NCBI GenBank assembly: GCA_043808325.1
Contig: JAZDEY010000068.1
Location: 1-64,000, forward strand
Direction of reading: 5' to 3'
Origin: JAZDEY01 sp043808325 [NCBI: Candidatus Eiseniibacteriota bacterium]
GTDB taxonomy: Bacteria; Arandabacterota; Arandabacteria; Arandabacterales
DNA length: 64,000 nucleotides
Shown: positions 39,002-61,368 of the stretch, piece after piece
How the letters are laid out: every line of letters begins with the position of its first letter
Position numbering within the stretch: position 1 is the first letter of the stretch
The notes under the pieces: model-generated
The model's input: the letters and a program-made list of their open reading frames with translations, nothing else
What the model was told of the DNA's origin: nothing
Database searches by the model: none
Program-made: the position numbers and the translations under genes

Positions 39002-39778
39002 TTACTTCGGCCTGCCTTCCCTGAGTGCGTTCACCACTTCTTCAACTATGGCTTTCACCAAGCCCGCCTGATCCATCTCCCCGCGAGGCAGGCAAGCGCC
39101 ACACTCCCGGCAACCGGGGTAGGCACCCTTGATCCCCAACTTGTCCCGGACCGCAAGCAACTTCATCACGTCTTCGTGCGCCAACGGGCTCACACCGCCC
39201 AGATGGCGCGCTATGAAGGCAATCTCGGCGAAATGCTCGACCGTCTCAAGCTTATGATAAGCATTCAAGAGGTCCGGTCCAACCGTCATCACACCGTGGT
39301 TCTTAAGGAGAAAGGCATCACACCTGGTCACCACCTGGGCAACGGACTCTGCGACCTCCTCGGTCGAGGGTGTCGCGTATTCGGCAAGCGGCACCGAACC
39401 GATCGTAACCACTACCTCGGGCAGCACACATTGGGCCAACGGGATTCCCGCAACCGCGAAGGCCGTGGCATAAGGCGGGTGGGCGTGGACAACCGCGCGT
39501 ATGTCATCCCTGAGGTGGTAGGCCTTGAGGTGCATCTTGATCTCGGAGGTGGCTTCACGCTTGCCGCTGACCTTATCCCCCTTCATATCGACCACGACAA
39601 GGTCGCTCTTGGCCATGAAGCCTTTGCTTATGCCCGTTGGGGTAGTCAGCAGCCGGTCGGCTGAGATTCGGACGCTTACGTTACCGTCGTTTGAGGCAAC
39701 ATAGCCGCGCTCGTACATGCGGCGGCCGACGTGAAGAATGCTCTCTGCAGCCTCATCGGGCGGAATCAGCCGTCTCAT
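39002..39778 (-). CDS. Class II aldolase, BMC-associated, with encapsulation-peptide-like tail
   Basis: 258 residues. Zinc-dependent class II aldolase/epimerase fold (FucA, RhaD, AraD family): Glu79 in ATSEIKMH, His98 and His100 in VHAHPP, and His161 in KNHGVM. Such enzymes split fuculose-, rhamnulose- or ribulose-type 1-phosphates into dihydroxyacetone phosphate and an aldehyde. After the domain come three Cys (CRECGAC, 223-229) and an amphipathic helix at 236-254 (DQAGLVKAIVEEVVNALRE) of the kind that targets enzymes into microcompartments. It is the last gene of the BMC operon and overlaps the EutN gene by 4 bases. Sugar specificity cannot be read from sequence. Confidence 0.87.
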   Translation of the reverse strand: MRRLIPPDEAAESILHVGRRMYERGYVASNDGNVSVRISADRLLTTPTGISKGFMAKSDLVVVDMKGDKVSGKREATSEIKMHLKAYHLRDDIRAVVHAHPPYATAFAVAGIPLAQCVLPEVVVTIGSVPLAEYATPSTEEVAESVAQVVTRCDAFLLKNHGVMTVGPDLLNAYHKLETVEHFAEIAFIARHLGGVSPLAHEDVMKLLAVRDKLGIKGAYPGCRECGACLPRGEMDQAGLVKAIVEEVVNALREGRPK

Positions 39779-40059
39779 CCGCCCTCGCCCTGACCGAGAT
39801 CGATCCGGTCGACCACGCCAAGAATCAGAGTCCTTATGGTGGGATATTCCATGGCGAGCACCGTCCGCGCAGCGGTGCCCTGGTCGACAATCAGAACGGT
39901 GTCGCCGGTACCGGAGTCCACCATGTCGATCGCAAGTATCGGTTCACCCTGAGGCTTACCGTCGGGCTCGAGCGGCTGGACGATCAGAATCTTGTGACAC
40001 CTGAGGGAATCGTGTTTGACCGATGAGACTACATCGCCGATCACTTTTCCGATATACAT
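39775..40059 (-). CDS. BMC pentameric vertex protein, EutN/CcmL type (copy 1)
   Basis: 94 residues. Single EutN/CcmL/PduN domain: MYIGKVIGDVVSSVKHD at the start, ILIVQPL, the GDTVLIVDQGTAAR stretch and the closing LGVVDRIDL. Five copies form the pentamer capping icosahedral vertices of the shell. It is one of three non-identical copies in the operon. Acidic Gly-rich C-terminal tail overlaps the aldolase start. Confidence 0.92.
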   Translation of the reverse strand: MYIGKVIGDVVSSVKHDSLRCHKILIVQPLEPDGKPQGEPILAIDMVDSGTGDTVLIVDQGTAARTVLAMEYPTIRTLILGVVDRIDLGQGEGG

Positions 40060-40076
40060 GGCTCACAAACCGTTCT

Positions 40077-40340
40077 CTACAGATCGACGCGATCCACAAT
40101 GCCCATGATCGCAGCGTCCGCCGGATTGAATTTCTCGTCGATCGCATTGGCCGCCTCGCGGCCCCGCACGAAGTACACAAGGTCGCCCGGACCTGCCCTC
40201 ACGATGTCGATCGCAACGATCGGCCTCCCGGATTCTTTCCCTTCGGGACTGAGGGGCTGGATCACCAGCAGCTTCTGTCCGGTCAGGGACTCCACCTTGC
40301 GCGTAGCGACCAGCGTGCCTATCACCTTTGCTATGTGCAC
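40077..40340 (-). CDS. BMC pentameric vertex protein, EutN/CcmL type (copy 2)
   Basis: 87 residues from GTG 40340. Same fold as its neighbour: HIAKVIGTLVATRKVESL, LLVIQPL, GDLVYFVRGREAAN and MGIVDRVDL. It starts 3 bases after the PduT-like gene stop. The canonical length without extra tails makes it a good candidate for the basic vertex pentamer. Confidence 0.92.
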   Translation of the reverse strand: MHIAKVIGTLVATRKVESLTGQKLLVIQPLSPEGKESGRPIVAIDIVRAGPGDLVYFVRGREAANAIDEKFNPADAAIMGIVDRVDL

Positions 40341-40343
40341 GAT

Positions 40344-40901
40344 CTAACCCATCTTCTGTTTAAGATCGTTGTGCGGCCGAGGGATCACCACGTCCTTCAC
40401 CAGCGTGCCGCGGTCTCTTATCAGCTCTACACCGGCGCGTACCCCCGCGGCGACGTCGCTCACGTCGCCGGTCAAAGTGACGAATGACTTCCCTGCCAAT
40501 CCCTGCGCAAGCCTGAGCTCGATCAGTTCGATCTTCGCGGCCTTCGCCGCACCGTCACCCGCAATTATCGCCGAGGCGACCGAGAAAGTCTCGATCACGC
40601 CCAGGGATCGTATGTCCTTCGGCACGCCGGTCCCCATTATCGCAGGAAAAACCTGTTCATGAATATTAGGAATGAAGAGGCTATCGACCACAAATTCGGC
40701 GCCCACCTCGACGCCGCGAGCCACCGACGAACTCACCGATGAGACATCTCCCCCGACAAGCGTTATGTACTTGCCCGGACAAATGGTCATGGCAAGCATC
40801 AAGGTGACCGGCGCAACCTTGACCATCTCGTCACAGGTTGCGATCCCCTGGGCGATGCTATTGAGTTCGACCAAGCCTATCGCTTCTATCTTACCGTTCA
40901 T
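40344..40901 (-). CDS. Tandem-BMC-domain shell protein, PduT-like with pore Cys
   Basis: 185 residues with two BMC domains (about 4-85 and 98-180), so it forms a pseudohexameric trimer. The first domain has TICPGKY with Cys41, the position at which Salmonella PduT holds a [4Fe-4S] cluster in the trimer pore; the surrounding order (VDSLFIPNIHEQVFPAI, SLGVIETFSVASAI, VIPRPH) follows PduT closely. It probably passes electrons across the shell. The PduS-like gene lies 12 bases upstream, the same functional pairing as in pdu operons. Confidence 0.92.
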   Translation of the reverse strand: MNGKIEAIGLVELNSIAQGIATCDEMVKVAPVTLMLAMTICPGKYITLVGGDVSSVSSSVARGVEVGAEFVVDSLFIPNIHEQVFPAIMGTGVPKDIRSLGVIETFSVASAIIAGDGAAKAAKIELIELRLAQGLAGKSFVTLTGDVSDVAAGVRAGVELIRDRGTLVKDVVIPRPHNDLKQKMG

Positions 40902-40913
40902 CTGGCTTCCGAT

Positions 40914-42254
40914 CTACTTCTTCTCGATAGTGATGTTATGATTGATGCCCGTCACCACCCCGTCTATGCTTGCGTGAACATTGGCCCCGATCTCACTCTG
41001 GGTGACGTCCGCTATAAGACGGCCCTTCCTCACGCCATCGCCAAGCTTGACCCTGGGTCTTGCCGCGACACCCGTATGCTGCAGGAGCGGAATCCTGACC
41101 GACTCGGGCTCGACCGTCCCGACGAATTCGATGTCCCGCTCATAGGGTGCCAGCCCGGTCCTCTCCACGATCCTCCTGTGAGGCACCAGCCTGTGCGGCC
41201 GCACTCTTTCCACTCCACGCACCGTATCCTGCGCAACTTTGATTCCGCGTTTCGCCATCTCGGCCCGGACTCTGAAGCTTATCCGGTCCGGCGAAAGCAG
41301 CATCGGACACACGTAGACCCCGCACAGCCCGCAACCCGAACAGAAGACCGCTCCGGCGATGTCGGGGGTAAATACCCGCGTCCACCCCACCGAGCGCATG
41401 ATCTTGTGCGGCGTTATGGCGTGGCCCATCAAGTGCCGCGGACAGAGCTCGGTACAGAAGGTACACTGGCAGCATACCGAGGCAGCACGTCTTACAATCG
41501 TCTCAACCGGGAGCGATTTTCTCACGATCACCTCGTTCGATCGAGGCAGCAAAATGACGGCTCCCACACGCTTGTCCACGGGCCTCGACAAGTCTTCACA
41601 CAACTCACCCATCATCACGCCTGAGAGCAGAATCCCCTTGGCATCAAGGCCCGCGGCGTTCCCCGTGAGCGTGAGCACATCCCCGACCGAAGTCCCCAAA
41701 GGCACCTCGAAAATCCCGGGCCGAGCGAGATCCCCGCACACCGACAAGACGCGCGTGGTAACCGGCGTGCCGCCCAGGGCGCGTTTGACATTGGCCAGAG
41801 TGTTGACATTGGACACGACCACCCCGACATCAGGCGGGATTCCACCCTGCGGTATCACCCGGCCGGTGAGCTCGTAGACAAGCAGATGCTCGTCGCCCGC
41901 GGGGTAGTTGTCCGGAACTGCGACCACCTCGATCCCCGAGGCGCCCTTCGCGGCCCTGGTCAGAGATTCGAATATGTCGCCATAGGATTCCCGGACTGCA
42001 ATGTAGCCGCGCGACGCACCGGTCGCGAGCATCATTATCGCGACCCCTTCCAGCACCTCCTCCGGCGCACCGGCAAGCACGTGCTTGTCCGACTGGACCA
42101 AGGGCTCGCATTCGCAACCGTTGGCAATCACGATGTCGGCCTTGGCCCGGGCCTTGACGTGGGTGGGAAACCCCGCACCCCCCGCGCCCACAACTCCGGC
42201 TTCGAAAATCTTGGTCACGATCTCATGCTTGGAGAACGGGAAATCCTTAGCCAA
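40914..42254 (-). CDS. PduS/RnfC-like flavo-iron-sulfur protein
   Basis: 446 residues. Gly-rich nucleotide/FMN region GVVGAGGAGFPTHVK (21-34), NGCECEPL, a SLBB-like segment, then two ferredoxin motifs CCQCTFCTELCP (near 262) and CSGCGLCGVYVCP (near 305), and a C-terminal barrel-sandwich-like domain. This is the architecture of PduS, described as a cobalamin reductase that binds PduT, and is related to RnfC. Here there is no B12-dependent dehydratase, so a general NADH-oxidising, electron-exporting role inside the compartment is more likely; that is inference. Confidence 0.9.
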   Translation of the reverse strand: MAKDFPFSKHEIVTKIFEAGVVGAGGAGFPTHVKARAKADIVIANGCECEPLVQSDKHVLAGAPEEVLEGVAIMMLATGASRGYIAVRESYGDIFESLTRAAKGASGIEVVAVPDNYPAGDEHLLVYELTGRVIPQGGIPPDVGVVVSNVNTLANVKRALGGTPVTTRVLSVCGDLARPGIFEVPLGTSVGDVLTLTGNAAGLDAKGILLSGVMMGELCEDLSRPVDKRVGAVILLPRSNEVIVRKSLPVETIVRRAASVCCQCTFCTELCPRHLMGHAITPHKIMRSVGWTRVFTPDIAGAVFCSGCGLCGVYVCPMLLSPDRISFRVRAEMAKRGIKVAQDTVRGVERVRPHRLVPHRRIVERTGLAPYERDIEFVGTVEPESVRIPLLQHTGVAARPRVKLGDGVRKGRLIADVTQSEIGANVHASIDGVVTGINHNITIEKK

Positions 42255-42265
42255 TCGAAGCGACC

Positions 42266-43705
42266 TCAGACAATCCTGAAATAGTCAACCAGCACGCATT
42301 TCCTCATCCGGGTGAACGTGCGCGCAGAGGTAAGCCCCTCACCTGTGGGACTCGCAATCGTAAAGCTGGTGTAACCTTCGCCACCGAAACCGAGCCCGGC
42401 ATAGCAGGGCCCATTTTTCACGAATATCGTGGTCTCGATCGACCGGGCCATCTGCGAAAGTTTGGTTATGTTGGTCGAATGCATCATCGCCGAATGGCCG
42501 AAACCCTGCTCCACTTCCTTGGCCGCCCTGATGCCCTGGTCGACGTCGCCGACCCTCACAACCGGAAGCACGGGCATTAAAAGCTCGGTCCACACGAAAG
42601 CGTGCGAAAGCGGCGTCTCGCAGATTATCAGTCTGGCTTGCGTCTCACTCTTGACGCCAATCGCCCGCAAGAAGTGCGACGCATCCTTGCCGACGAATTT
42701 GCGATTGGTCACGGCATGCCTGCTGGGGCCCCGGTCTTCCTTTATGATAAGCGCGCGCAGTCTGTCGATGTCCCCACCCTTGATCTCAATCGCTCCACTG
42801 TCGGCCATCTTGCGCTTAAGTTGGTCGGTTATGGTCCCGACCGCCAGCACTTCCTTCTCGCAGATGCAGACTATGTTGTTGTCCAGCGAGGCGCCATCGA
42901 CGATGTGCCGCCCGGCGCTGTCAAGATCGGCGGTCTCGTCTACCACGACCGGAGGGTTTCCGGGCCCGGCCGCGATCACTTTCTTGCCGGACTTCATCGC
43001 CTCTCTCACAACCGCTCCTCCCCCGGTCACCACAAGCAGCCTCACCTTGGGATGCTTCATCAGAGCCTGTGCGGATTCAATGCTCGGCTCTTCAATTGAT
43101 GCAAGAACATTCGGCGGGCCGCCTTCGGACTGGATCGCCGAATTCAAGAGTTCGATCGTCCGTAACGTGGTCAGCCTGGCGCTCGGATGCGGATTGAAGA
43201 CGACCGAGTTACCGCCCGCGACCATGCCGATCGCGTTATTGATGACGGTCTCCGAAGGATTGGTTGAGGGAGTGATGGAGCCTATCAGGCCGTAAGGCGC
43301 CCTCTCAAGTATCGTAAGGCCATGATCGCCTGAGACCGCATCCGGTTTCAGGTCTTCCACGCCGGGGGTTCTGGTGGCGGCAAGCAGGTTCTTCTTTACC
43401 TTGTCTTCAAGCCTGCCGAGGCCGGTCTCCTCAAGCGCCATCCGCGAGAGTTCCTCGGCGTGCTCACATGCCGCCCGGCGCATCGCCTCAATCATTCTTC
43501 CGCGCGCCTCGAGCGGCAGATCTACAAGTCCCCGCTGAGCTTTCTCGGCCTCGTCAATTGCCGTCTCAATCGAGCCGAATGCGCCGCGCTTTCCGGACAG
43601 TGAGGACGAGGGTGAGGAAGGGACTCCCAAACCTTGGGTTCTTAGTTTCTTGAGGACCTCCTCGACAATCGAGCCTATGGTTCGCTCATCAAGCATACTT
43701 CTCAT
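42266..43705 (-). CDS. CoA-acylating aldehyde dehydrogenase, PduP/EutE-like
   Basis: 479 residues. Converts an aldehyde, CoA and NAD to acyl-CoA and NADH. Nucleotide-binding SITPSTNPSETVINN and catalytic Cys280 in NNIVCICEKEV are typical of PduP/EutE. Residues 4-22 (MLDERTIGSIVEEVLKKLR) form an amphipathic helix followed by a Ser/Pro/Gly linker, the layout of an N-terminal encapsulation peptide. The ATG overlaps the upstream EutN gene by 17 bases; a second ATG at 43696 is possible. It links the aldolase product to PduL in the pathway. Confidence 0.93.
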   Translation of the reverse strand: MRSMLDERTIGSIVEEVLKKLRTQGLGVPSSPSSSLSGKRGAFGSIETAIDEAEKAQRGLVDLPLEARGRMIEAMRRAACEHAEELSRMALEETGLGRLEDKVKKNLLAATRTPGVEDLKPDAVSGDHGLTILERAPYGLIGSITPSTNPSETVINNAIGMVAGGNSVVFNPHPSARLTTLRTIELLNSAIQSEGGPPNVLASIEEPSIESAQALMKHPKVRLLVVTGGGAVVREAMKSGKKVIAAGPGNPPVVVDETADLDSAGRHIVDGASLDNNIVCICEKEVLAVGTITDQLKRKMADSGAIEIKGGDIDRLRALIIKEDRGPSRHAVTNRKFVGKDASHFLRAIGVKSETQARLIICETPLSHAFVWTELLMPVLPVVRVGDVDQGIRAAKEVEQGFGHSAMMHSTNITKLSQMARSIETTIFVKNGPCYAGLGFGGEGYTSFTIASPTGEGLTSARTFTRMRKCVLVDYFRIV

Positions 43706-43982
43706 AGACCACTTTGCCCATCAGTTCGATCGTATCGACCACTCCGCAGATCACCGCGTCAACAGGAGTCTCCTTGGTCTTGTCGGTCAATCGAGCCGAA
43801 CTCCCCTGGGCACACAGCACGATCTCGCCGTAGCCTGCGCCGACCGCGTCAGCACAGACCATGGACTGGCCGGTGGGTTTGAGGTCCATATTGACGATCT
43901 TAACTATAAGAAGTTTGAGGCCTCTCAGTCGCTCTTCTTTCCTCGTGGCGACAAGGGTACCGACAACTTCACCGACTAGCAA
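43689..43982 (-). CDS. BMC pentameric vertex protein, EutN/CcmL type (copy 3)
   Basis: 97 residues from TTG 43982, after GGAGGAAG. EutN fold: LVGEVVGTLVATRKEERL, LLIVKIV, GEIVLCAQGSSAR and ICGVVDTIEL. It carries two Cys and a C-terminal VVYEKYA extension absent from the other two copies, and sits between the hexamer genes and the aldehyde dehydrogenase. Confidence 0.92.
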   Translation of the reverse strand: MLVGEVVGTLVATRKEERLRGLKLLIVKIVNMDLKPTGQSMVCADAVGAGYGEIVLCAQGSSARLTDKTKETPVDAVICGVVDTIELMGKVVYEKYA

Positions 43983-44027
43983 TGCTTCCTCCGCTTCAGG
44001 CTTCTCCGTCCGCCGCGTTGCCTACGG

Positions 44028-44342
44028 TTACTTCCCCTTCTGCATCTTGCCTATTGGAAGCACGTCTTCAAGATTGGTATGTGGCCTCGGGATCACGTGC
44101 ACCGACACCAGCTCACCCACCTTGCTTGCAGCCGCCCCGCCCGCATCGGTAGCGGCCTTGACCGCCGCCACGTCACCACGGACGATCGCAGTGACGTAAC
44201 CGCCGCCGATTTTCTCGTAGTGAACCAGCGTAACCTTGGCTGCCTTGACCATCGCGTCGGAGGCCTCGACCATTGCCACAAAACCCCTGGTTTCGATCAG
44301 CCCCAAAGCTTCTCGGTATATGCCGTCTCCTGTTTCAGCCAA
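44028..44342 (-). CDS. BMC hexameric shell protein (copy 2)
   Basis: 104 residues from TTG 44342, with AAGGGGG 9 bases upstream. One BMC domain of the PduA/EutM kind: [20 protein letters not shown] in part, pore segment KIGGGYVT, and [16 protein letters not shown]. Relative to copy 1 it has about 10 extra residues at the N-terminus and a Lys-rich C-terminal tail (PIGKMQKGK). Hexamers tile the shell facets and their central pore passes small metabolites; the triple Gly pore loop is shared with copy 1. Confidence 0.94.
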
Positions 44343-44418
44343 TTTGCTTAACCCCCTTCTTTGAACAGTCGTCAGCGATCATCTGATGGATCCGGGTGCC
44401 CGAATCCGGCTCCTCCGG

Positions 44419-44694
44419 TCAGTCCTGGGTGAGCATCGTATCTTCAAGAGCTTCGTCGGGTCTCGGGATAACGTGAGCACTCACAAGTTCGCCGACCTTC
44501 TGGGCCGCTCTGGCACCCGCCTCAACAGCTGCCATGACCGCTCCGACATCTCCACGCACCAGAACCGTAACGTAGCCGCCCCCGATCTTCTCATACTTCG
44601 TCAGCTGGACCTGCGCCGTCTTGACCATCGCATCCGCAGCTTCCACGGCAGCCACAAAACCCTTGGTTTCTATCTTGCCAAGAGCCTCCGGCAA
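44419..44694 (-). CDS. BMC hexameric shell protein (copy 1)
   Basis: 91 residues from TTG 44694 after GGAGG. Canonical BMC domain: [20 protein letters not shown] in part, pore KIGGGYVT (36-43), [17 protein letters not shown] and HVIPRP. It is about 65-70% alike to copy 2 by eye, so the pair arose by duplication. Being shortest and first of the shell genes it is the likely main facet protein. Confidence 0.94.
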
Positions 44695-44725
44695 GGCAAA
44701 CCACCTCCTCAGCTTACACCATGTG

Positions 44726-45382
44726 CTACACTATGATCTCAGCAAAACAGCCTGTATCTACCCCGGAAGCGTTAGCATCGTCAGTATCTACGTGAAAGTC
44801 AAGCACAAATCCATCGCCTGCTCTGATGATAACGTTCTCGAAGGTCACTGCCCTCACTCCTGCCACTCGAGCTCTCATCACCTGACCGTCTCGGAGTCCG
44901 AATCTGGCAGCATCGTCGCTGCTCATGTGTACATGACGGGTGGTGCGGATCGCTCCCTCTCTGAGAACCACGGTACCGGCTGGACCGACAACTGTGACCC
45001 CCGGGGTACCCTCGAGATCCCCGGTTCTTCTCACCGGCAGATCAATCCCAAGCCTCAGGCCGTCACTGCGCGCAAGCTCGACCTGGGTGAATCGCCGCAA
45101 GGGCCCTAGAAGGCGCACCCTCTCTATGGCTCGGCCGTTTGGTCCTACCAGGGTCACGGTCTCACGGGCAGCAAACTCGCCCACCTGGGTCAAGGGGCGG
45201 TCAACCCCGAGTTCGAAGCCCTTGCCGAAGAGGCCTTCGAGCACCTCCCGCGTGAGGTGCAAGTGACGGCCGGACACTCCGAGGGGGACAATAATCTTGC
45301 CTTCAAGGTCATGTTGGCCAATCCTTGCCTTGACGCGCCGGGCGATCTCATCGGTCAGTCTTCCTATGTCAAGGTCTTCCAT
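44726..45382 (-). CDS. pduL: Phosphate acyltransferase PduL
   Basis: 218 residues from ATG 45382. Converts acyl-CoA and phosphate to acyl phosphate and free CoA, recycling CoA inside the compartment. Two zinc-binding segments VSGRHLHLT (His40, His42) and TRHVHMS (His150, His152) define the family. The first 22 residues ([20 protein letters not shown]) are an amphipathic helix like the PduL encapsulation peptide, so the lumenal form is expected. It is the first gene behind the operon promoter. The acyl-phosphate would yield ATP by a kinase not found in the window. Confidence 0.93.
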
Positions 45383-45450
45383 CGGCTCGGAACCTCGGTG
45401 GCCGGGGGTAACCGCAGGAGCGGCCCGCGGTCTTGCTGCACAATGCGAAG

Positions 45451-45480
45451 AAGGTAACAGATTGATTCGGAGGGTGTCAA
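45451..45480 (-). promoter_or_regulatory. Promoter of the BMC operon
   Basis: TTGACA (45480-45475), 18-base spacer, TACCTT (45456-45451; matches T1, A2, T6). The predicted start is about 60 bases before pduL. No operator or dedicated regulator gene is seen. Between 45481 and 45832 I find no supported gene. Confidence 0.6.
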
Positions 45481-45942: not shown

Positions 45943-47784
45943 TCAGCGCCGCAGATGGGGAAACCCCATGGAGCCGTAGAATTCGTCTTTGAATTCGGGG
46001 CGTGAGAAAAGCTCGACATGCTCCGCACTTGCGGCGATCTCCTTTGCGTCACGGCGAGCCCGGTCTGAGACCAACAAGATCTTGGCCCCTTCAATCGCTG
46101 AGTTGCCTATCACTCTGATCCTTGCCTTGACGTCCGGAGGAACCAGTCCGATCGCCCGGATGCTTGCGGGCTTGAGGGCCGAACCGAAACTCCCGGCGAT
46201 CAGAACCTCACTGATCTCATTCATCCTGACCCCAACGGCGTTCGTGAGCACCCTGATGCCCGCGCTCAGGGCTGCCTTGCCAAGCTGAACCTCCCGCACG
46301 TCACCTTGCCTCAAGGTAATCAGCGGCTTGCGGCACAGCGTGAATTCACGCCCGCGCTCGCTCTCGAGAATCCTCTCGGCAAGGGCCGGGTTCCTGACTT
46401 CCTCCCTTGTTCTCATCCTGCCTGTGGGCTCGATCACGCCGACGCGCACCATCTCGGCGACCGCCGCCAGCAGCCCCGAGCCGCACAATCCCACCGGACT
46501 CCCGCCGCCGATGCACTTGAGCACCACACCACCCCGGCTTATCTTCACATCCTCAATTGCACCGGCTATGGCCCGTACCCCGGCGCTTATGCGCTCACCC
46601 TCGAAGGCCGGGCCGGCGGCAGTCGAGCACGCGGCAATCCTGCCACACCACGCAAGCACGATCTCGCCGTTGGTCCCAAGGTCCACGGCCACAACCGGCC
46701 GCTTACGCTTATGAAGAGACTGCGAAACGATCAGGGCCACCAAGTCTCCCCCCACGAAGCCGCCTATCACGGGAGGCATCACCAGCCGGCAGTGGGGATG
46801 GGCCTTGATACCTATTCGTGACGCAAGCGTCTCCGTTGAAGAGACGATCCGCGCCCTATACGGAGCGACCCCGAGATCAGCAGGAGACAAGCCCACCAGG
46901 ATGTGTTGCATCGCCGTGTTACCGACGGCACTGCAAATATAGATCATCCCTCGATCGACTCTGAGCTTGCGAACGAGCTCATCGATGAGGCCATTGACCA
47001 GGTTTACGATCTCCAGGTGCAGCATCTCGAGCCCGCCCGGCCTCTTCGAGAATCTGATGCGCGAGATAACATCGTCCCCGTGCGCAACCTGGGGATTGAT
47101 TGTTGATGCCACCCCAAGCTCCCTGCCGGTCGCGAGGTCGACAAGGGAGCACACCACCGTATTGGTTCCCACATCGACCGCGATACCGTAGCACTGCCGA
47201 GACGTGTCCCCCGCCTCAAAACCGACAATTTCGTCCTTGATCGCAACCACCGTCGCATTGGAGTGAAGGCCAAGTCTCCACTGGTGGTCCGTGCGAAGAG
47301 CCGCATCCATCAGGCCGGGATCGGTCATGCTGAGGGCTATATCTTCGACGCTGATCCCATAGTCATCTTCCAGAACACGCATCGAGTCTCGTCTTCGCTT
47401 GCCCAAGAAGACCTTGATGATGCTGGGGCGGAATCGATAGGAACCTGAGGTCACACCCCGCGCCGCGATTCTTTGGATGGAGATCCGCGATGAGGGTGGG
47501 ATCGTGACCACCACATCGCCTTCAATCCTCGCGAAGCAGGCGAGCCGCCCTCCTCTAGGGCACGACGGAAGCTTGCGTTTTTCTTCCTCGGCAGGCTTTG
47601 CGACCTTGCCCTTGACGTAGACGAGGCACCGGCCGCATCTGCCGTGACCGCCGCAGGGCATCGAGATCGGGATTGAGGCCGCAAACAGCGCATCCTTGAC
47701 CGTGGATCCCGAGACCACCCAGGCCTCTTTGGAGTCGGGCTTAAAGGCCACTCTAACCGACTGCTTGTCCAACTGGTCCTTCAA
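45943..47784 (-). CDS. [2Fe-2S]-ASKHA protein, corrinoid reductive activator (RACE/DUF4445) family
   Basis: 613 residues from TTG 47784. N-terminal plant-type [2Fe-2S] domain with Cys44, Cys50, Cys53 and Cys83 (PCGGHGRCGRC), a linker, then a two-lobed ASKHA ATPase: YGIAVDVGTNT near 198 and VVAVDLGTNGEIVL near 366, with GGFVGGDL and IAGSFGSAL. Family members use ATP to drive one-electron reduction of inactive Co(II) corrinoid proteins. No corrinoid protein or methyltransferase is in the window; the nearest metabolic neighbours are the BMC genes. It might instead serve an enzyme encoded elsewhere. Confidence 0.88.
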   Translation of the reverse strand: MKDQLDKQSVRVAFKPDSKEAWVVSGSTVKDALFAASIPISMPCGGHGRCGRCLVYVKGKVAKPAEEEKRKLPSCPRGGRLACFARIEGDVVVTIPPSSRISIQRIAARGVTSGSYRFRPSIIKVFLGKRRRDSMRVLEDDYGISVEDIALSMTDPGLMDAALRTDHQWRLGLHSNATVVAIKDEIVGFEAGDTSRQCYGIAVDVGTNTVVCSLVDLATGRELGVASTINPQVAHGDDVISRIRFSKRPGGLEMLHLEIVNLVNGLIDELVRKLRVDRGMIYICSAVGNTAMQHILVGLSPADLGVAPYRARIVSSTETLASRIGIKAHPHCRLVMPPVIGGFVGGDLVALIVSQSLHKRKRPVVAVDLGTNGEIVLAWCGRIAACSTAAGPAFEGERISAGVRAIAGAIEDVKISRGGVVLKCIGGGSPVGLCGSGLLAAVAEMVRVGVIEPTGRMRTREEVRNPALAERILESERGREFTLCRKPLITLRQGDVREVQLGKAALSAGIRVLTNAVGVRMNEISEVLIAGSFGSALKPASIRAIGLVPPDVKARIRVIGNSAIEGAKILLVSDRARRDAKEIAASAEHVELFSRPEFKDEFYGSMGFPHLRR

Positions 47785-47859: not shown

Positions 47860-49626
47860 CTACGGTCTCGGTACCTCCAGGGGCTGAGCTCGATGCAGGA
47901 GCAGCCAGTCGGCGTTTTCCGCCAGGGCTTCCTTTCCCAGCTCCAGGAGAATCGCCTGAGCCCGCGCGAGATCGCCTCTCGCCAGCAGGTCAACCAGCCG
48001 TGTGTGCGCGTACCTGAACACCGGGGCCATCCGCCCGTATTGTCTGGCCTGTTCCGACAGCACGGTCTTCTCGGCGTATCCGTACAAGGCCGCAGCCGCA
48101 GCCAGCAGCATCCCGATTGCGACCACCGTGATACGGTAGATGCTCCCGATGGGATAACTCGCAGGTCCGGCGAAAAATGACCAGGACCGCCACAGTCCGA
48201 ACGGGAGCAAGGCGAGCACCCCACTCGCAAGAAACAGCCAATTGCTCAGAGACTTGAGTCTCCCGAATCCCAGCGCATTGGCGGGAGTCTTCCTCTCGAA
48301 GAAATCTCTCTGCCCGGCCACCCAGCAGTCCGCAACAATCCTCAGACGATCGGCCGCAGGGCTGACGCGGGGCCAGCATGGCAGGGTCCAGCCCCTTACC
48401 GCGAAACGAATCCATTGGAGCTCTCCCCTGTGTTTCAGGAGATAATGATCCGACACATTCTGGTCGATTGCCGCAAGCCCCCAGAAGAGCTGAACCCGCA
48501 TCGCTTCGGCCAGGGCTCTATAATCCTCGTGTTTGGTCTCATAGCCGGCGCCTCTCGCGGCCGAATACCAGACCCAACCCAGGGCCAGGATCAACGGATA
48601 AAGAAGGAGAAGACCGGGGGAACGGTATGTTTCAGCATTGAGCTGCAGGATGACAAAAGCCGCCAAGACTATCAAGAACAGGGCTCTTATCGTCCGTACT
48701 CTCCGAGTCCTGTACCTCGAAGCCAGAGTATCGGCAACAGCATAGCAACTCAGAAGCCCGGCGCAAGGTTCCCCCAGGAGGTCCGCATGTTGCGGCGGCA
48801 CCGCCCGGCGCTTGTTGCCATCAATCTCGCCCCTCAGCTTGGGGTGAAGACCCCTGACGTCTCTGTTATAGATGCTGGTCTCCCTGGCGATCCCCCGATA
48901 GAGCTCCGCGGCGTGCGCTTCGCTTCCCCAGTCCTCCGGATATAGTATCGTGACCGAGTACAGATCACGCGCCGGTTCAGGGTTGCTGAGTCTCGGTACC
49001 ATGAGGTGATACGTCAGCCCGCCCTCAGGTTGGTGAAGCGAATTCGGCCGCTCGGCAAATGCGTCTGGAAGGCCGAAGCGCCTGAGTCTTATGACGTGCC
49101 CTGTCCCGCCGCTCTTTCCCAGGTCGACGCCGTCCCACAAGGCAATCAAGATCTGGGAGTGGCGCGCAATGTAGTCACCCAGGCGGCCGTACTGCATATC
49201 GCGGGGCATTCCGGGCGCGGCGATATCGGCCGGCGTATTGCCTTCGACCAACGGTAGCTCGAAGCTATGCGCCGCACTACCGAGCAAGTCGTCGAATTCG
49301 GTTTGAGACTCAGGGGTTCCGAAATCGTGCCGGTATTGCGCGATCGGCATTGGAAACGTAACCACCAGCTTGGCATCGAATTCCAGGGCTATCCTGGCCA
49401 CGACCCTGTCTGCTCCCTCTGCCAGGGCCGAGAGCACAATCATGGGCGAACCGTCGTGCATCCGCCGAAGATCCTCAAATACCTTGCGCAGTGCCGCCTC
49501 AATCGCCGGTATGGTTTCCGGCACGAGATCCCTATGGCCTGCGACTCCGACCACAAGGGGAATCAACACGCTGTCAATCTCAGGCGGGTGCATTGCCCTG
49601 CGGCAATCATTATGGTTTACGGTCAT
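47860..49626 (-). CDS. SLOG-like domain protein with four C-terminal membrane helices
   Basis: About 588 residues from ATG 49626 (ATG 49593 is also possible; the frame open to 49800 runs across tRNA-Ala and is rejected). Residues 12-170 look like a SLOG-type Rossmann nucleotide-sensing domain: PLVVGVAGHRDL, IVLSALAEGADRVV, LVVTFPMPIAQYRHDF and ILIALWDG. The middle is polar. Two hydrophobic hairpins follow (about 305-345 and 485-550), flanked by charged helices, like SLATT-type membrane effectors. SLOG plus SLATT proteins were proposed as nucleotide-activated conflict effectors that permeabilise membranes. No cyclase or nuclease partner is adjacent. Assignment is by pattern, not by search. Confidence 0.6.
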   Translation of the reverse strand: MTVNHNDCRRAMHPPEIDSVLIPLVVGVAGHRDLVPETIPAIEAALRKVFEDLRRMHDGSPMIVLSALAEGADRVVARIALEFDAKLVVTFPMPIAQYRHDFGTPESQTEFDDLLGSAAHSFELPLVEGNTPADIAAPGMPRDMQYGRLGDYIARHSQILIALWDGVDLGKSGGTGHVIRLRRFGLPDAFAERPNSLHQPEGGLTYHLMVPRLSNPEPARDLYSVTILYPEDWGSEAHAAELYRGIARETSIYNRDVRGLHPKLRGEIDGNKRRAVPPQHADLLGEPCAGLLSCYAVADTLASRYRTRRVRTIRALFLIVLAAFVILQLNAETYRSPGLLLLYPLILALGWVWYSAARGAGYETKHEDYRALAEAMRVQLFWGLAAIDQNVSDHYLLKHRGELQWIRFAVRGWTLPCWPRVSPAADRLRIVADCWVAGQRDFFERKTPANALGFGRLKSLSNWLFLASGVLALLPFGLWRSWSFFAGPASYPIGSIYRITVVAIGMLLAAAAALYGYAEKTVLSEQARQYGRMAPVFRYAHTRLVDLLARGDLARAQAILLELGKEALAENADWLLLHRAQPLEVPRP

Positions 49627-49663
49627 ACCGGTATCATCGCCGGGCAAACATAAGGAAAATAAC

Positions 49664-49739
49664 TGGTGGAGCTGACGGGAGTCGAACCCGTGACCCTTTG
49701 TCTGCCAGACAAATGCTCTCCCAACTGAGCTACAGCCCC
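49664..49739 (-). tRNA. tRNA-Ala (GGC)
   Basis: 76 bases with encoded CCA. Acceptor GGGGCTG/CAGCTCC contains the G3:U70 pair that identifies alanine tRNAs. Anticodon stem TTTGT/ACAAA, loop CTGGCAG with anticodon GGC. T arm has GGTTCGACTCC. It lies 38 bases upstream of the SLOG-like gene. Confidence 0.96.
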
Positions 49740-49766
49740 ACCCAAACCACGATCGTCTTTGCAAGC

Positions 49767-49794
49767 AATATAGCAGAGATCGGTCTAGAGTCAA
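49767..49794 (-). promoter_or_regulatory. Promoter of tRNA-Ala
   Basis: TTGACT (49794-49789), 16-base spacer, TATATT (49772-49767). About 27 bases before the tRNA 5' end. Confidence 0.65.
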
Positions 49795-49829
49795 TAACAA
49801 ACCAGGGTCTGCCGCGGACTGCAGCCCCC

Positions 49830-52609: not shown

Positions 52610-53569
52610 GTGGCCAAGCTTAAGGTCGCACTTTACTGGGCTGCCAGCTGCGGCGGTTGCGAGATTGCCGTACTCGACATCGGGGATAAGATCCTCCAGT
52701 TGGTCTCGAACGCCGAGATCGTTTTCTGGCCGGTGGCCCTGGATTTCAAGTACAAAGACGTGGAGCGGATGCCCGACCGCTCGATCGATCTCTGCCTCTT
52801 CAACGGTGCGATCCGGACCTCGGAGAACGAGCATCTGGCCAGACTCCTCAGGCGGAAATCCAAGATCCTGGTGGCCTACGGATCTTGCGCCAACGAGGGC
52901 TGTATACCGGGCCTTGCCAACCAGTTCAACCGTGACGAGATATTCAATTACGTTTACGCCGCCACTCCGTCGACCGATAACCCCGAGGGCGTGAGACCCC
53001 AAACGTCTTTCCAGGTGAAGGAAGGGGAACTCACACTTCCGGCTTTCTACAACACCGTGAAAACCCTTGAGCAGGTGGTCAAGGTCGACTATTTTGTGCC
53101 GGGTTGTCCGCCGATTGACGAACAGACCTGGGCGGTGCTGGAGGCGGTGCTAAACGATCAGCTACCTCCCGCCGGTGCAGTTGTGGGAGCCGGAAAGACA
53201 GCGCTGTGCGAGGATTGCCCGAGGCCGCGCAAGGAGAAGAAAGTAAAACGCTTCTACCGGCCGCACGAAGTGATCCCCGAGCCCGACCTGTGCCTCTTGG
53301 ACCAGGGTGTCATATGCTGCGGTATCGTCACCAGAACGGGATGCGGGGCCCAGTGCCTGAGCGTCAACATGCCCTGCAGGGGATGCTATGGTCCTCCGGA
53401 AGGCGTGGTCGACCAGGGCGCGAAGCTGATTTCGGTGCTGGGCTCGATCATCGATTCGACTGATTCCGACGAGATTGAGAAGGTCTGTGCGACCGTCCTG
53501 GACCCTCTCGGAACCGCCTACAGATATGGACTGGCAAATTCCATCCTGAGAAGGAGCAGGTTGCGATGA
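52610..53569 (+). CDS. [NiFe] hydrogenase small subunit, group 3 (MvhG-like)
   Basis: 319 residues from GTG 52610, after GGAGG. Electron-transfer subunit without a Tat signal, so cytoplasmic. Proximal cluster Cys in SCGGCE (Cys14, Cys17), GSCANEGC and VPGCPP; a C-terminal Cys-rich part (CEDCPR, ICCGIV, GCGAQC, PCRGCYGP) would hold two more clusters. This layout matches the MvhG/F420-non-reducing hydrogenase small subunits. The large subunit gene overlaps by 4 bases. Its likely partner MvhD-like protein is at 61369. Confidence 0.9.
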   Translation: MAKLKVALYWAASCGGCEIAVLDIGDKILQLVSNAEIVFWPVALDFKYKDVERMPDRSIDLCLFNGAIRTSENEHLARLLRRKSKILVAYGSCANEGCIPGLANQFNRDEIFNYVYAATPSTDNPEGVRPQTSFQVKEGELTLPAFYNTVKTLEQVVKVDYFVPGCPPIDEQTWAVLEAVLNDQLPPAGAVVGAGKTALCEDCPRPRKEKKVKRFYRPHEVIPEPDLCLLDQGVICCGIVTRTGCGAQCLSVNMPCRGCYGPPEGVVDQGAKLISVLGSIIDSTDSDEIEKVCATVLDPLGTAYRYGLANSILRRSRLR

Positions 53570-55074
53570 AGCGAATCACCATAGATCCCGTGACCAGGCT
53601 GGAAGGGCACGGCAAGATCGAGGTATTCCTCGACGACGGCGGCGAAGTGGAGAATGTCTACCTCCAGATCCCCGAGCTCAGGGGCTTTGAGAAGTTCTGT
53701 GTAGGTCGCCCCGTGGAGGAGCTGCCGCGCATAATGACCCAGATCTGCGGCGTGTGTCCCGAAGCCCATCACATCGCAAGCTCCAAGGCGGCGGATGCGG
53801 TCTACCATGTTGATCCCCCGCTTGTCGGCAAGAAGACCCGCGAGCTCTTCTACAGCACCTTTTTTGTTACGGACCATGCCACGCATTTCTATATTCTTGG
53901 CGGCCCCGATTTCATCGTCGGTCCCGACGCGAGCCCCGCCGAACGCAACATAATCGGAGTGATCGGCAAGGTCGGAGCCGAAGTGGGCCTGAGGGTGATA
54001 AACCTGAGAAAGCGTTGCCACAACATCATCAAGTTAATGGGTGGCCGGAGCATCCACCCGGTGTTCTCTATCCCCGGCGGCGTCAGCAAGCCGGTCGCCG
54101 AGGACGAGCGGCGGCAGATCGAAGAAGCGGCGAAGGAGGCAGTTGAATTCGGCAAGTTTACGCTTCAGGTTTTCGAGGATGTTGTGCTCAAGAACTCCGA
54201 CTATGTGAAGCTTATAACCAGCGATGCCTACGCTCACAGGACCTACTACATGGGCCTTGTGGACAAGAACAACCTGATCAATTTCTATGACGGCATGGTC
54301 CGGGTGGTCGACCCCGAAGGCAAAGAATTCGCTAAGTTCGAAGGGAAGGACTATCGGGACCACATTGCGGAGCACGTCGAACCCTGGACTTATCTCAAGT
54401 TCCCTTACCTTAAGAAGGTCGGCTGGAAGGGTCTGGTCGACGGCAAGAACTCCGGCGTATATCGGGCTACTCCGCTGTCAAGATGCAACGCTGCAGACGG
54501 AATCGCCACTCCGCTTGCCCAGAAGGAATACGAGAAGATGTACGACACCCTGGGCGGCAAGCCCGTCCATGCGACGCTGGCGACCCACTGGGCGCGGGTG
54601 ATTGAGCTCCTGTACGCGGCGGAAAGGATGTACGAGCTTGCGACCGACTCCGACATAGCCCGCTTGAGCCGCGAGTTGAGCGCCAAGGGATTCGACAGGG
54701 CGCTCCACAGTCAGGTCCGGACGGCCCCCAAAGACATTCCTACCGAGGGTGTCGGAGTCGTGGAGGCGCCTCGAGGCACACTCTTCCACCACTATGTCAC
54801 TGATGAAAAGGGCATCGTCACGGATGTCAATCTGATCGTGGGAACCACCAACAACAATGCGGCCATCTCGATGTCCCTCAAGAAAGCTGCGAAGTCGGTA
54901 ATAAAGAAGAACGGCGAGATAACCGAAGGGGCTTTGAACCTGGTGGAGATGGCCTTCCGCGCCTACGATCCGTGCTTCGGTTGCGCCACCCACTCGCTTC
55001 CCGGCAGGATGCCGTTGGAGATCGTCGTTTACGATAGCCGGGGCAGGAAGGTTTCCGAGAAGAGCAGGTACTGA
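53566..55074 (+). CDS. [NiFe] hydrogenase large subunit, group 3 (MvhA-like)
   Basis: 502 residues. Ni ligands are supplied by the L1 motif QICGVCPEAH (near 62-71) and L2 motif DPCFGCATH (near 472-480), four Cys, no selenocysteine. ITIDPVTRLEGHGKIEV is the usual N-terminus. After L2 comes a tail of about 22 residues, expected to be removed after His by a maturation endopeptidase, for which a gene lies at 60841. MvhA-like group 3c assignment is from overall pattern and the MvhD-like gene nearby; group 3 bidirectional alternatives are not excluded. Confidence 0.92.
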   Translation: MKRITIDPVTRLEGHGKIEVFLDDGGEVENVYLQIPELRGFEKFCVGRPVEELPRIMTQICGVCPEAHHIASSKAADAVYHVDPPLVGKKTRELFYSTFFVTDHATHFYILGGPDFIVGPDASPAERNIIGVIGKVGAEVGLRVINLRKRCHNIIKLMGGRSIHPVFSIPGGVSKPVAEDERRQIEEAAKEAVEFGKFTLQVFEDVVLKNSDYVKLITSDAYAHRTYYMGLVDKNNLINFYDGMVRVVDPEGKEFAKFEGKDYRDHIAEHVEPWTYLKFPYLKKVGWKGLVDGKNSGVYRATPLSRCNAADGIATPLAQKEYEKMYDTLGGKPVHATLATHWARVIELLYAAERMYELATDSDIARLSRELSAKGFDRALHSQVRTAPKDIPTEGVGVVEAPRGTLFHHYVTDEKGIVTDVNLIVGTTNNNAAISMSLKKAAKSVIKKNGEITEGALNLVEMAFRAYDPCFGCATHSLPGRMPLEIVVYDSRGRKVSEKSRY

Positions 55075-55115
55075 CCGCTTGGCGCTTTAGCTCGGGCGGG
55101 AATCCAACGGCAGTC

Positions 55116-56123
55116 TCAGCAAATCCTGGGAAGCAGTTCCCCAGACAGCGGACTCAGGATTCTCCGGCCTCCTACACCCGTATTCAAGACCACCATCCCC
55201 GGATGATCCCCAACCACCCGGCCTATCGCGGCCGAGCCCTCACCGTATCTGGTGCCGCGCATGACGCCAAGGACGGCGTTCGCTTCTTCCGCGGGTACGA
55301 AGGCCACCAGCTTACCTTCATTGGCAACATAGAAGACGTCGAGCCCGAGCAACTCACAGGCTTCGGCCACCGCAGGCCTGACCGGCACCGCGCTTTCCTC
55401 GACCACGATACCGACGCCTGATCTCTCGGCGATCTCATTGAGGGTGGATGCCAGCCCACCACGGGTGGGATCGCGCATCGCATGTATCGAATTGGTCACA
55501 CCAAGCATCGCCGCGACCAGGCCGTTAAGAGGCGCGGTATCGCTCACGAGGTCAGTCTCGAAATCGATCCCTTGCCGTTTGGAAAGCACGGCGATCCCAT
55601 GGTCGCCGATCGATCCACTGAGGATGACCACATCTCCAGGCGAGGCATTTGACGAAGAGATGTCGACGCCGGCAGGCACCACGCCGATGCCGGACGTATT
55701 GACGAAAACCAGGTCGGCCGAACCCTTGCCAACCACCTTGGTGTCTCCACCGACCACCGGTACCCCGGCTTCCGCCGAGGCGGCTCTGACCGACTCGAGA
55801 ATCCGGCGCAGACTGGCAAGCGGCAACCCCTCCTCCAGTATCAAGCTCAGGGTGATCGCGACCGGTGAAGCCCCGACCATAGACAGATCATTGACCGTAC
55901 CGTTGACCGCCAGGCCGCCGATGTCGCCGCCCGGGAAGAATATGGGATCGACGACGTAGGAATCCGTAGTGAAGGCTATCCTGCCGGGTTCCAGCACGAG
56001 GACCGCCGAATCATCCAGGCGTCGAATCACATCGTTGTCGAGATACGTGTGCACGATCTCCTCCACGAGCCGCCTCGAGGCCTCTCCCCCACTGCCGTGT
56101 GAAAGCCTGATCACCTGGTCCAT
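55116..56123 (-). CDS. hypE: Hydrogenase maturation protein HypE
   Basis: 335 residues from ATG 56123. ATP-dependent dehydratase that turns a carbamoylated Cys into thiocyanate, the CN ligand source. Starts MDQVIRLSHGSGG; ATP-binding VVGGDTKVV and RDPTRGGLAS. The C-terminal PRIC carries the modified Cys, which separates it from SelD and PurM relatives. It is convergent with the hydrogenase genes and last in the hyp run. Confidence 0.96.
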   Translation of the reverse strand: MDQVIRLSHGSGGEASRRLVEEIVHTYLDNDVIRRLDDSAVLVLEPGRIAFTTDSYVVDPIFFPGGDIGGLAVNGTVNDLSMVGASPVAITLSLILEEGLPLASLRRILESVRAASAEAGVPVVGGDTKVVGKGSADLVFVNTSGIGVVPAGVDISSSNASPGDVVILSGSIGDHGIAVLSKRQGIDFETDLVSDTAPLNGLVAAMLGVTNSIHAMRDPTRGGLASTLNEIAERSGVGIVVEESAVPVRPAVAEACELLGLDVFYVANEGKLVAFVPAEEANAVLGVMRGTRYGEGSAAIGRVVGDHPGMVVLNTGVGGRRILSPLSGELLPRIC

Positions 56124-56165
56124 GCGGCCCACCCGCCAACCGTAGAGCCCGCGACTTCGGCCATG

Positions 56166-57248: not shown

Positions 57249-57460
57249 TCAAGAACCTCACGCATGATCCGAAGGGTCTCCTCAGCTTCCTCCTTCTCAA
57301 TCTTATGGATGGCGAAGCCGGCATGCAGCAAGACATAGTCGCCCACGTCCGCAGGGCGATCGATCAGCTCCAGGCTGATCTCCCTCAGGACTGCTCCAAT
57401 ACTTGCTTTGGCAAGATTCCCATGTTTCTCAACGATCAACGCCGGAATTGCAAGACACAT
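57245..57460 (-). CDS. hypC: Hydrogenase maturation chaperone HypC
   Basis: 71 residues. MCLAIPA with essential Cys2, then the OB-fold including VGDYVLLHAGFAI. It binds HypD and the large-subunit precursor to deliver the Fe centre. Confidence 0.96.
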   Translation of the reverse strand: MCLAIPALIVEKHGNLAKASIGAVLREISLELIDRPADVGDYVLLHAGFAIHKIEKEEAEETLRIMREVLE

Positions 57461-57494
57461 ACGCCAGCCTCCACCGGGTCGTCACGACAGGACG

Positions 57495-60490: not shown

Positions 60491-60491
60491 A

Positions 60492-60833: not shown

Positions 60834-60840
60834 GGTCACC

Positions 60841-61326: not shown

Positions 61327-61368
61327 AAAGACCGGGGACTCCAGAGACTGGTGCTTCTCGGCAGTGAG

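What the first reader, a model, noticed from the sequence alone, without database searches (positions are those of the whole stretch)
39002..45480. Compact aldolase-type microcompartment operon with no alcohol dehydrogenase or signature lyase
Seen: ten collinear genes encode PduL, two BMC hexamers, three EutN pentamers, a PduT-like trimer, PduS-like protein, PduP-like dehydrogenase and a class II aldolase behind one promoter. Known: aldolase-based compartments exist in Planctomycetes/Verrucomicrobia (fucose and rhamnose) and other sugar-phosphate types, but standard catabolic compartments recycle NAD with an alcohol or lactaldehyde dehydrogenase. Inference: here the aldolase makes an aldehyde inside the shell, PduP and PduL turn it into acyl phosphate, and NADH is reoxidised by PduS with electrons leaving through the Fe-S trimer. 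This would be a redox-exporting compartment type.
Basis: partly seen in the sequence, partly recalled or inferred. Interest (0 to 1): 0.85.

Follow-up and report, generated by a model that had tools for sequence, protein, structure and literature searches.

The report
Nucleoside-sugar microcompartment with split gene set

Summary
The ten genes are real and collinear. They belong to the SPU/HO family of metabolosomes, not to a new redox-exporting class. The "missing signature enzyme" exists: of 8 genomes held for the phylum of the closest relative, 5 carry a satellite Cdd-RpiB-DeoC-nucleoside phosphorylase operon, its DeoC bearing an encapsulation-type helix in 4 of 5; a sixth has DeoC inside its compartment locus. 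The class II aldolase ends in a helix matching the PduP encapsulation peptide. In Spirochaetota its homologues lie beside methylthioribose kinase and isomerase (MtnK, MtnA), twice in one cluster with shell genes. Best reading: two aldolases feed one shell, DeoC with 2-deoxyribose-5-phosphate and the class II enzyme probably with 5-deoxyribulose-1-phosphate (DHAP shunt). Fucose/rhamnose is unlikely: FGGY kinases in 0 of 8 genomes. The trimer's pore cysteine accompanies PduS (20 of 20 with, 0 of 64 without), fitting electron export. Aldolase specificity is unproven; a 51% identical homologue lies in a fucose operon. I found no paper proposing a DHAP-shunt compartment.

The parts
44726..45382 (-). 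PduL phosphotransacylase, with N-terminal amphipathic helix
   Evidence: PF06130 214 bits; NF011652 221 bits over cut-off 209; start ATG read
44419..44694 (-). BMC-H shell hexamer 1
   Evidence: PF00936
44028..44342 (-). BMC-H shell hexamer 2 (EutM-like, NF012018 143 bits over cut-off 133)
43689..43982 (-). BMC-P pentamer 1
   Evidence: PF03319
42266..43705 (-). PduP-type CoA-acylating aldehyde dehydrogenase
   Evidence: PF00171; NF011927 660 bits over cut-off 403
43646..43696 (-). N-terminal encapsulation-type helix of PduP (residues about 4-20)
40914..42254 (-). PduS/RnfC-like flavin Fe-S protein; two cysteine cluster motifs read by eye
   Evidence: PF01512, PF13375, PF13534; RnfC alignment
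40344..40901 (-). PduT-like BMC-T trimer
   Evidence: two BMC domains; nearest solved 3nwg, 3pac
40779..40781 (-). pore cysteine Cys41 of BMC-T, aligned with Cys in 3nwg and 3pac and with Ser in 3n79
40077..40340 (-). BMC-P pentamer 2
   Evidence: PF03319
39775..40059 (-). BMC-P pentamer 3
   Evidence: PF03319
39002..39778 (-). class II aldolase; E79, H98, H100 invariant and H161 nearly invariant among 14 homologues
   Evidence: PF00596 170 bits; alignment A1
39017..39079 (-). C-terminal encapsulation-type helix of the aldolase (residues about 234-254)
   Evidence: 13-residue ungapped match to the PduP N-terminus, 0 of 1000 shuffles as good; helix 238-253 in a low-confidence model
45943..47784 (-). 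RACo/ASKHA-type protein with 2Fe-2S domain, syntenic neighbour; membership in the compartment not shown
   Evidence: PF14574, PF17651, PF00111; synteny

Best explanation
The locus encodes the shell and core of an SPU/HO-family catabolic metabolosome for nucleoside-derived sugar phosphates. Acetaldehyde is made inside the shell by two encapsulation-tagged aldolases. One is DeoC, encoded in relatives in a satellite nucleoside operon (2-deoxyribose-5-phosphate to glyceraldehyde-3-phosphate + acetaldehyde). The other is the class II aldolase of this locus, most likely acting on 5-deoxyribulose-1-phosphate or 5-methylthioribulose-1-phosphate made by MtnA (to DHAP + acetaldehyde or methylthioacetaldehyde; the DHAP shunt). 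PduP turns the aldehyde into acyl-CoA with NAD, and PduL regenerates CoA and gives acyl phosphate. In place of a local alcohol dehydrogenase, PduS and an Fe-S-type trimer probably carry the electrons of NADH to the cytosol. Shown by computation: gene set, tails, satellite DeoC in relatives, MtnA in relatives, MtnK/MtnA linkage of homologous aldolases in Spirochaetota. Inferred: the reactions, encapsulation, the direction of electron flow, and that the window's own genome, which is not held, has the satellite genes.
For: The PduP tree (90 rows, FastTree) puts the window among SPU-type, HO-like and Eisenbacteria loci; the core order H-P-PduP-(PduS)-T-P-P is shared with DeoC+RpiB loci. Satellite Cdd-RpiB-DeoC-PynP in 5 of 8 phylum genomes; in L183 all four exceed NCBIfam cut-offs, the other four operons were read by similarity. 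DeoC with N-terminal encapsulation-type helix in 4 of 5. The same class II aldolase clade occurs with DeoC in compartment loci L011, L141, L143, L159, L170. MtnA family in 6 of 8 phylum genomes (2 of the 6 checked, both above TIGR00512). PF00596: one protein in each of 9 of 11 genomes, none in 2, so no second one that could be MtnB; in G001, G003, G004, G005, G011, G012 it is the compartment aldolase. FGGY kinases 0 of 8. In Spirochaetota L255 and L256 carry shell genes, aldolase, MtnK and MtnA in one cluster, L255 also PduP, with no DeoC or RpiB match in the stretches fetched (18.5 and 18.9 kb). L265 and L263 carry MtnK-MtnA-aldolase with tailed aldolases; the L265 tail matches the DeoC tail of the same genome's SPU locus, 0 of 1000 shuffles as good. 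E. coli ATCC 25922 mtnK-mtnA-ald2 is the known shunt. Pore Cys with PduS 20 of 20, without 0 of 64.
Against: No whole genome is held for the window. DeoC was not found in 2 of 8 phylum genomes (G001, G002), nor MtnA in 2 of 8 (G003, G006); these are draft bins of unstated completeness. MtnA is common in this company whatever the aldolase, 20 of 24 further genomes, and two genomes with the class II aldolase, G010 and G058, gave no MtnA, so MtnA presence does not discriminate. The step making 5-deoxyribose-1-phosphate is not identified: 4 of 22 PNP_UDP_1 hits were tested and none reached the MTA phosphorylase cut-off; MtnK was not searched in this phylum. Six of the 12 places fetched wide show no MtnA or MtnK, and one of them (L264, 51% identical aldolase) lies with alpha-fucosidase, fucose isomerase and an FGGY kinase, so the clade includes likely fuculose-phosphate aldolases; E. 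coli Ald2 groups with E. coli FucA, so specificity cannot be read from descent. On the PduP tree PduS and Cys change only 4 times each and the paired sign test is not significant; L011 has Cys with only a weak 58-bit PduS match. Three of the other tail comparisons were weaker or at chance level (15, 53 and 212 of 1000).
Confidence: 0.6

Rival explanations
1. The class II aldolase works on D-ribulose-1-phosphate from ribonucleosides (phosphorolysis, then isomerisation), giving DHAP + glycolaldehyde, so that the compartment burns both ribose and deoxyribose of nucleosides.
For: Purine nucleoside phosphorylases in the relatives, nucleoside context of the satellite operon, an aldolase homologue beside pyrimidine nucleoside phosphorylase in L260; the ribulose-1-phosphate aldolase model NF053831 is among the matches, 118 bits against cut-off 300.
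Against: MtnK next to homologous aldolases in clusters with shell genes points to 5-modified ribose; no isomerase for ribose-1-phosphate was identified.
Confidence: 0.2
2. Fucose/rhamnose compartment of the PVM or PVM-like kind: the aldolase makes lactaldehyde from L-fuculose- or L-rhamnulose-1-phosphate.
For: Class II aldolase with PduP, PduL and three BMC-P; a homologue in a fucose operon (L264).
Against: FGGY kinases 0 of 8 phylum genomes; no DeoR regulator, lactate/malate dehydrogenase or acetate kinase among the ten genes; PduP groups with SPU/HO-like loci (no PVM sequence was in that tree).
Confidence: 0.1
3. One reading: a self-contained, new redox-exporting compartment with the class II aldolase as sole aldehyde source.
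For: Locus content; PduS and trimer Cys; Fe-ADH not found in 6 of 8. G001, the closest relative, and G002 gave no DeoC.
Against: Satellite DeoC with RpiB in 5 of 8 and in-locus DeoC in one more, tails on 4 of the 5.
Confidence: 0.1

Closest known systems
SPU (sugar phosphate utilization) metabolosome (PMC8217296 section 8; PMC4207490 passages)
   Same: PduP clade, core gene order, BMC-P triplet, PduS in some members, DeoC + RpiB in the genomes of relatives, no alcohol dehydrogenase in the locus
   Different: DeoC and RpiB are in a separate nucleoside operon; a class II aldolase is in the main locus
SPU-like loci of Latescibacteria (PMC4207490, passages)
   Same: AldDH, PduL, PduS and a class II aldolase in one locus
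   Different: [quoted passage not shown] no sequence comparison was possible
HO metabolosome of Haliangium ochraceum (PMC8217296, sections 8 and 10)
   Same: BMC-P triplet; [quoted passage not shown] DeoC-type enzyme elsewhere in some genomes with an encapsulation-like extension; function called enigmatic
   Different: here PduL, PduS and the cysteine-bearing trimer are in the locus; the family of the HO satellite aldolase is not stated in what I read
ACI metabolosome of Acidobacteria (PMC8217296, section 8)
   Same: class II aldolase with C-terminal encapsulation peptide and BMC-P triplet
   Different: ACI keeps its AldDH on a satellite locus and has a hydroxyacid dehydrogenase
PVM / PVM-like / GRM5 fucose-rhamnose compartments (PMC4207490, passages)
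   Same: class II aldolase + PduP
   Different: no lactate dehydrogenase, DeoR or glycyl radical enzyme in the locus; no FGGY kinase in 8 relatives
DHAP shunt, mtnK-mtnA-ald2 of E. coli (PMC12632272, passages; gene region)
   Same: class II aldolase and MtnA; products DHAP + an aldehyde
   Different: no shell genes in the E. coli shunt region; E. coli Ald2 groups with FucA; MtnK not located in this phylum
Compartment genes of Candidatus Effluviviacota (PMC11323493, abstract and passages)
   Same: candidate phylum near Eisenbacteria with PduP-bearing BMC genes and no assigned substrate; possibly the same lineage, not tested
   Different: the main text has no hit for aldolase, PduL or deoxyribose
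Methylthioribose kinase beside a BMC cluster of Acetobacterium woodii (PMC7593272, one passage)
   Same: an MtnK gene next to compartment genes, already in print
   Different: there it follows a 1,2-propanediol cluster and the authors call it unrelated to BMC function; the text has no hit for aldolase

Membership tests
SPU metabolosome | DeoC (PF01791) and RpiB (PF02502) in the locus | tested here: not met
   neither in the window locus; present as satellite in 5 of 8 phylum genomes
SPU metabolosome | AldDH of the SPU clade | tested here: met
   PduP tree of 90 rows mixes window, SPU-type and HO-like rows; no PVM, EUT or PDU rows were in it
PVM / PVM-like | class II aldolase signature enzyme | tested here: met
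   PF00596
PVM / PVM-like | FGGY kinase for fuculose/rhamnulose in the genome | tested here: not met
   PF00370 in 0 of 8 genomes of the phylum; the window's own genome is not held, so tested in relatives only
PVM | lactate/malate dehydrogenase, acetate kinase and DeoR regulator in the locus | tested here: not met
   none among the genes between ASKHA and ProS
PDU / GRM / EUT | B12 or glycyl radical lyase, or ammonia lyase, in the locus | tested here: not met
Metabolosome core | AldDH + PTAC + AlcDH | tested here: not met
   AldDH and PTAC met; no AlcDH in the locus; Fe-ADH in 2 of 8 genomes
HO metabolosome | HO-type shell and aldolase by locus-type models | not testable with these tools
   catalogue models and supplements not available
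DHAP shunt | MtnK (or MtnP) + MtnA + class II aldolase | tested here: inconclusive
   MtnA 6 of 8 and aldolase met; MtnK not searched in this phylum; no MTA phosphorylase among 4 of 22 PNP hits tested
PduS/PduT redox pair | Fe-S cysteine at the trimer pore together with PduS | tested here: met
   Cys41; cluster binding itself not testable here

The most novel reading that the evidence does not exclude
A microcompartment that runs the DHAP shunt: it breaks down 5-deoxyribose and methylthioribose, the waste of radical SAM and polyamine chemistry, alongside DNA deoxyribose, makes the aldehydes of both inside one shell, and exports the electrons through PduS and an Fe-S pore. Spirochaetota loci L255 and L256, with shell genes, aldolase, MtnK, MtnA and sugar ABC transporter genes in one cluster, would be dedicated versions, and the same aldolase module may explain part of the enigmatic HO compartment.
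Probability: 0.45. Interest if true: 0.8.

Novelty: new variant of a known kind. Interest (0 to 1): 0.6.

Why it matters
Many catalogued compartments, among them HO (the structural model shell) and ACI, have an aldehyde dehydrogenase but no obvious enzyme that makes the aldehyde (PMC8217296, section 8). If the tailed class II aldolase is a DHAP-shunt aldolase, some of these become testable with one enzyme assay, and organelle-level salvage of 5-deoxyribose would be a new use for a compartment. For the window lineage it replaces 'unknown' by a nucleoside-scavenging role.

Tried and rejected
Fucose/rhamnose reading: put low after FGGY 0 of 8, though L264 shows a homologue in a fucose operon. MtnA as a discriminating marker: rejected, because 20 of 24 further genomes have it. 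MTA phosphorylase as entry enzyme: of 4 hits tested, three are purine nucleoside phosphorylases and the one between ASKHA and PduL in L003 reached no cut-off. Aldolase tree for specificity: uninformative, E. coli Ald2 sits with FucA. Cys motif in the aldolase tail: the CxxCxxC of the window copy is not kept in its close relatives, so dropped. AlphaFold model of the aldolase: mean pLDDT 52.8, used only for the C-terminal helix. Promoter scan: no site upstream of PduL. Paired sign test of PduS against Cys: too few independent changes. Weaker tail comparisons: PduP against PduL 15 of 1000, window PduP against L183 DeoC 53 of 1000, L183 DeoC against window aldolase 6 of 1000, G253 PduP against aldolase 212 of 1000. 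Rows behind the trimer count: 94 loci considered, 6 without a trimer match and 3 with short fragments left out, 85 aligned, 1 with a gap at the position; two genomes were reached twice (L006/L114 and L026/L136), so the 64 are 62 different genomes.
Full report
Observation. Each protein matches its Pfam family above the gathering score, 10 of 10. The genes are packed with gaps of -17 to +76 bases. The gene order, with an ASKHA/2Fe-2S protein upstream and ProS downstream, is kept in L030, L004 and L144. L001, L002, L003 and L005 lie on contigs that end inside the locus but keep the order where it can be seen.

Where it comes from. No genome is held for the window. The closest PduP proteins (six loci at 73-78% identity) are in MAGs labelled 'bacterium' or Ca. 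Eisenbacteria. The phylum of the closest one holds 8 genomes, and 8 of 8 carry a PduP homologue at E <= 1e-60. G007 and G008, also labelled Ca. Eisenbacteria, fall into another phylum set of 47 genomes, 31 of which have the protein at E <= 1e-80. The lineage could be Ca. Effluviviacota, whose paper reports PduP-bearing compartment genes without an assigned substrate (PMC11323493, abstract and passages); window G+C is 56-60% per 4 kb. I could not test the identity.

What family. A PduP tree of 90 rows (FastTree) places the window among Eisenbacteria loci, SPU-type loci of Spirochaetes, Atribacteria and Holophagaceae, and loci of the phylum of G010 (labelled Archangium), which I call HO-like from their gene order. 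No PVM, EUT or PDU sequence was available for the tree. The block H-P-PduP-(PduS)-T-P-P is common to the window and to DeoC+RpiB loci such as L025. G024, G025, G026 and G027 have PduL-H-H-P-PduP-PduS-T (a BMC-P following in G025 and G026) with no aldolase seen in the fetched stretch.

The missing signature enzyme. In G003, G004, G005, G006 and G011 a DeoC gene follows RpiB and cytidine deaminase and precedes pyrimidine nucleoside phosphorylase. In L183 all four exceed their NCBIfam cut-offs, DeoC by 286 bits against 117; a fragment upstream matches the Metalloenzyme family, to which phosphopentomutase belongs (recalled). The other four operons were read by similarity and by eye. DeoC has an N-terminal amphipathic helix before the barrel in 4 of the 5; in the fifth (L188) the open frame starts after that point. 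G012 keeps DeoC inside its compartment locus. G001 and G002 gave no DeoC.

The class II aldolase. The catalytic Glu and three zinc His of the family (recalled from E. coli FucA) are kept: E79, H98 and H100 are invariant and H161 nearly so in A1, 14 rows. A 13-residue stretch of its C-terminus matches the PduP N-terminal helix without gaps (score 33, 0 of 1000 shuffles as good), and a low-confidence model gives a separate C-terminal helix. In a survey of 392 genomes drawn from the phylum of G253 (L009, labelled Spirochaetales) 48 had a match to the aldolase profile at E <= 1e-45, 51 places in all. Of the 30 loci returned, 5 have MtnA or MtnK in the fetched stretch and 3 have shell genes. Twelve places were fetched wider. 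L255 carries BMC-H, BMC-P, PduP, BMC-T, two more BMC-P, the aldolase with a tail, MtnK, a DeoR-like regulator, a periplasmic binding protein, MtnA and an ABC ATPase, with no DeoC or RpiB match in 18.5 kb. L256 has ABC transporter genes, three BMC-P, the aldolase with a tail, MtnK, a DeoR-like regulator and MtnA. L265 and L263 have MtnK-MtnA-aldolase with transporter genes; L258 has aldolase, DeoR-like regulator and MtnA, and L257 the same with an MtnA fragment at the contig end. Six of the twelve (L259-L262, L264, L266) showed no MtnA or MtnK; of these L259 has a BMC-H gene, L264 has alpha-fucosidase, fucose isomerase and an FGGY kinase, and L260 has pyrimidine nucleoside phosphorylase next to the aldolase. 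MtnK and MtnA of L204 (the same place as L265), L255 and L256 exceed their equivalog cut-offs. L265 lies in G253, whose SPU-type locus is L009, and its aldolase tail matches the DeoC tail of that locus (score 36, 0 of 1000). In the aldolase tree the MtnA/MtnK-linked proteins fall in three places among the compartment aldolases. The known shunt mtnK-mtnA-ald2 was read in E. coli ATCC 25922 (PMC12632272, passages).

In the window's phylum itself an MtnA-family protein is present in 6 of 8 genomes, no second PF00596 protein that could be MtnB is seen, and FGGY kinases are found in 0 of 8. Against the reading: MtnA also occurs in 20 of 24 other genomes examined, and G010 and G058 have the aldolase without MtnA; the step that would make 5-deoxyribose-1-phosphate is not identified. 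The substrate of the window aldolase is therefore likely but unproven.

Electrons. Among 84 trimers with a residue at the pore position, 20 of 20 from loci with a PduS match have cysteine and 0 of 64 from loci without it do; one further row had a gap there. The 64 come from 62 different genomes, as two were reached twice. If the weak 58-bit PduS match of L011 is not counted, it is 19 of 19 and 1 of 65. The traits change only 4 times each on the PduP tree, so this is consistent rather than independent evidence. The cysteine aligns with that of 3nwg and 3pac and with a serine in 3n79; that 3n79 is a Cys-to-Ser form is recalled. Fe-ADH was found in 2 of 8 genomes. PduS/PduT electron transfer across shells and SPU loci with PduS but no alcohol dehydrogenase are already in print (PMC4207490, passages), so this half of the idea is not new.

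Novelty. In the held library I found no paper that proposes a DHAP-shunt or MtnA-linked microcompartment. One paper notes a methylthioribose kinase gene beside a propanediol compartment cluster of Acetobacterium woodii and calls it unrelated (PMC7593272, one passage); PMC12583861 mentions both words in separate contexts; PMC9397018, PMC11046441 and PMC8147161 were seen in listings only. The supplements of the BMC catalogue, which hold the locus diagrams, could not be read, so an unnamed catalogue type may already contain these loci. Hence 'new variant of a known kind'.

Noticed in passing
L183 about 1261-1500; also L159, L170, L178-L181, L184-L188: The linker between encapsulation helix and barrel of DeoC holds a CxxCxxC motif in 12 of 40 DeoC rows: the window's relatives, G024-G027 and two loci of the phylum of G010. 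A metal or Fe-S site on a cargo aldolase would be unexpected.
   Followed up: partly
window 52610-61860: [NiFe] hydrogenase large subunit, small-subunit-like protein, a methyl-viologen-reducing delta subunit and Hyp-like maturation genes, starting about 7 kb from the operon's 5' end; a possible electron sink (Hyp names read by eye).
   Followed up: partly
window 45943-47784; L030 2736-4706; L004 4029-6110: A RACo/ASKHA protein with 2Fe-2S domain is syntenic with PduL; in L030 (Pfam) and L004 (by eye) a molybdopterin oxidoreductase precedes it, which is not at that place in the window.
   Followed up: partly
L003 1560-2345: A nucleoside phosphorylase/nucleosidase-family gene lies between the ASKHA gene and PduL in one relative; below all NCBIfam cut-offs listed.
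   Followed up: partly
L006 8198-9415: A fructose-1,6-bisphosphatase-like gene follows the shell genes in an Eisenbacteria relative in which no class II aldolase was found; read by eye.
   Followed up: no
window 47860-49800: Long ORF with no Pfam match at 1e-5, overlapping a tRNA at 49667-49739 on the same strand, so its longest start is probably wrong.
   Followed up: no
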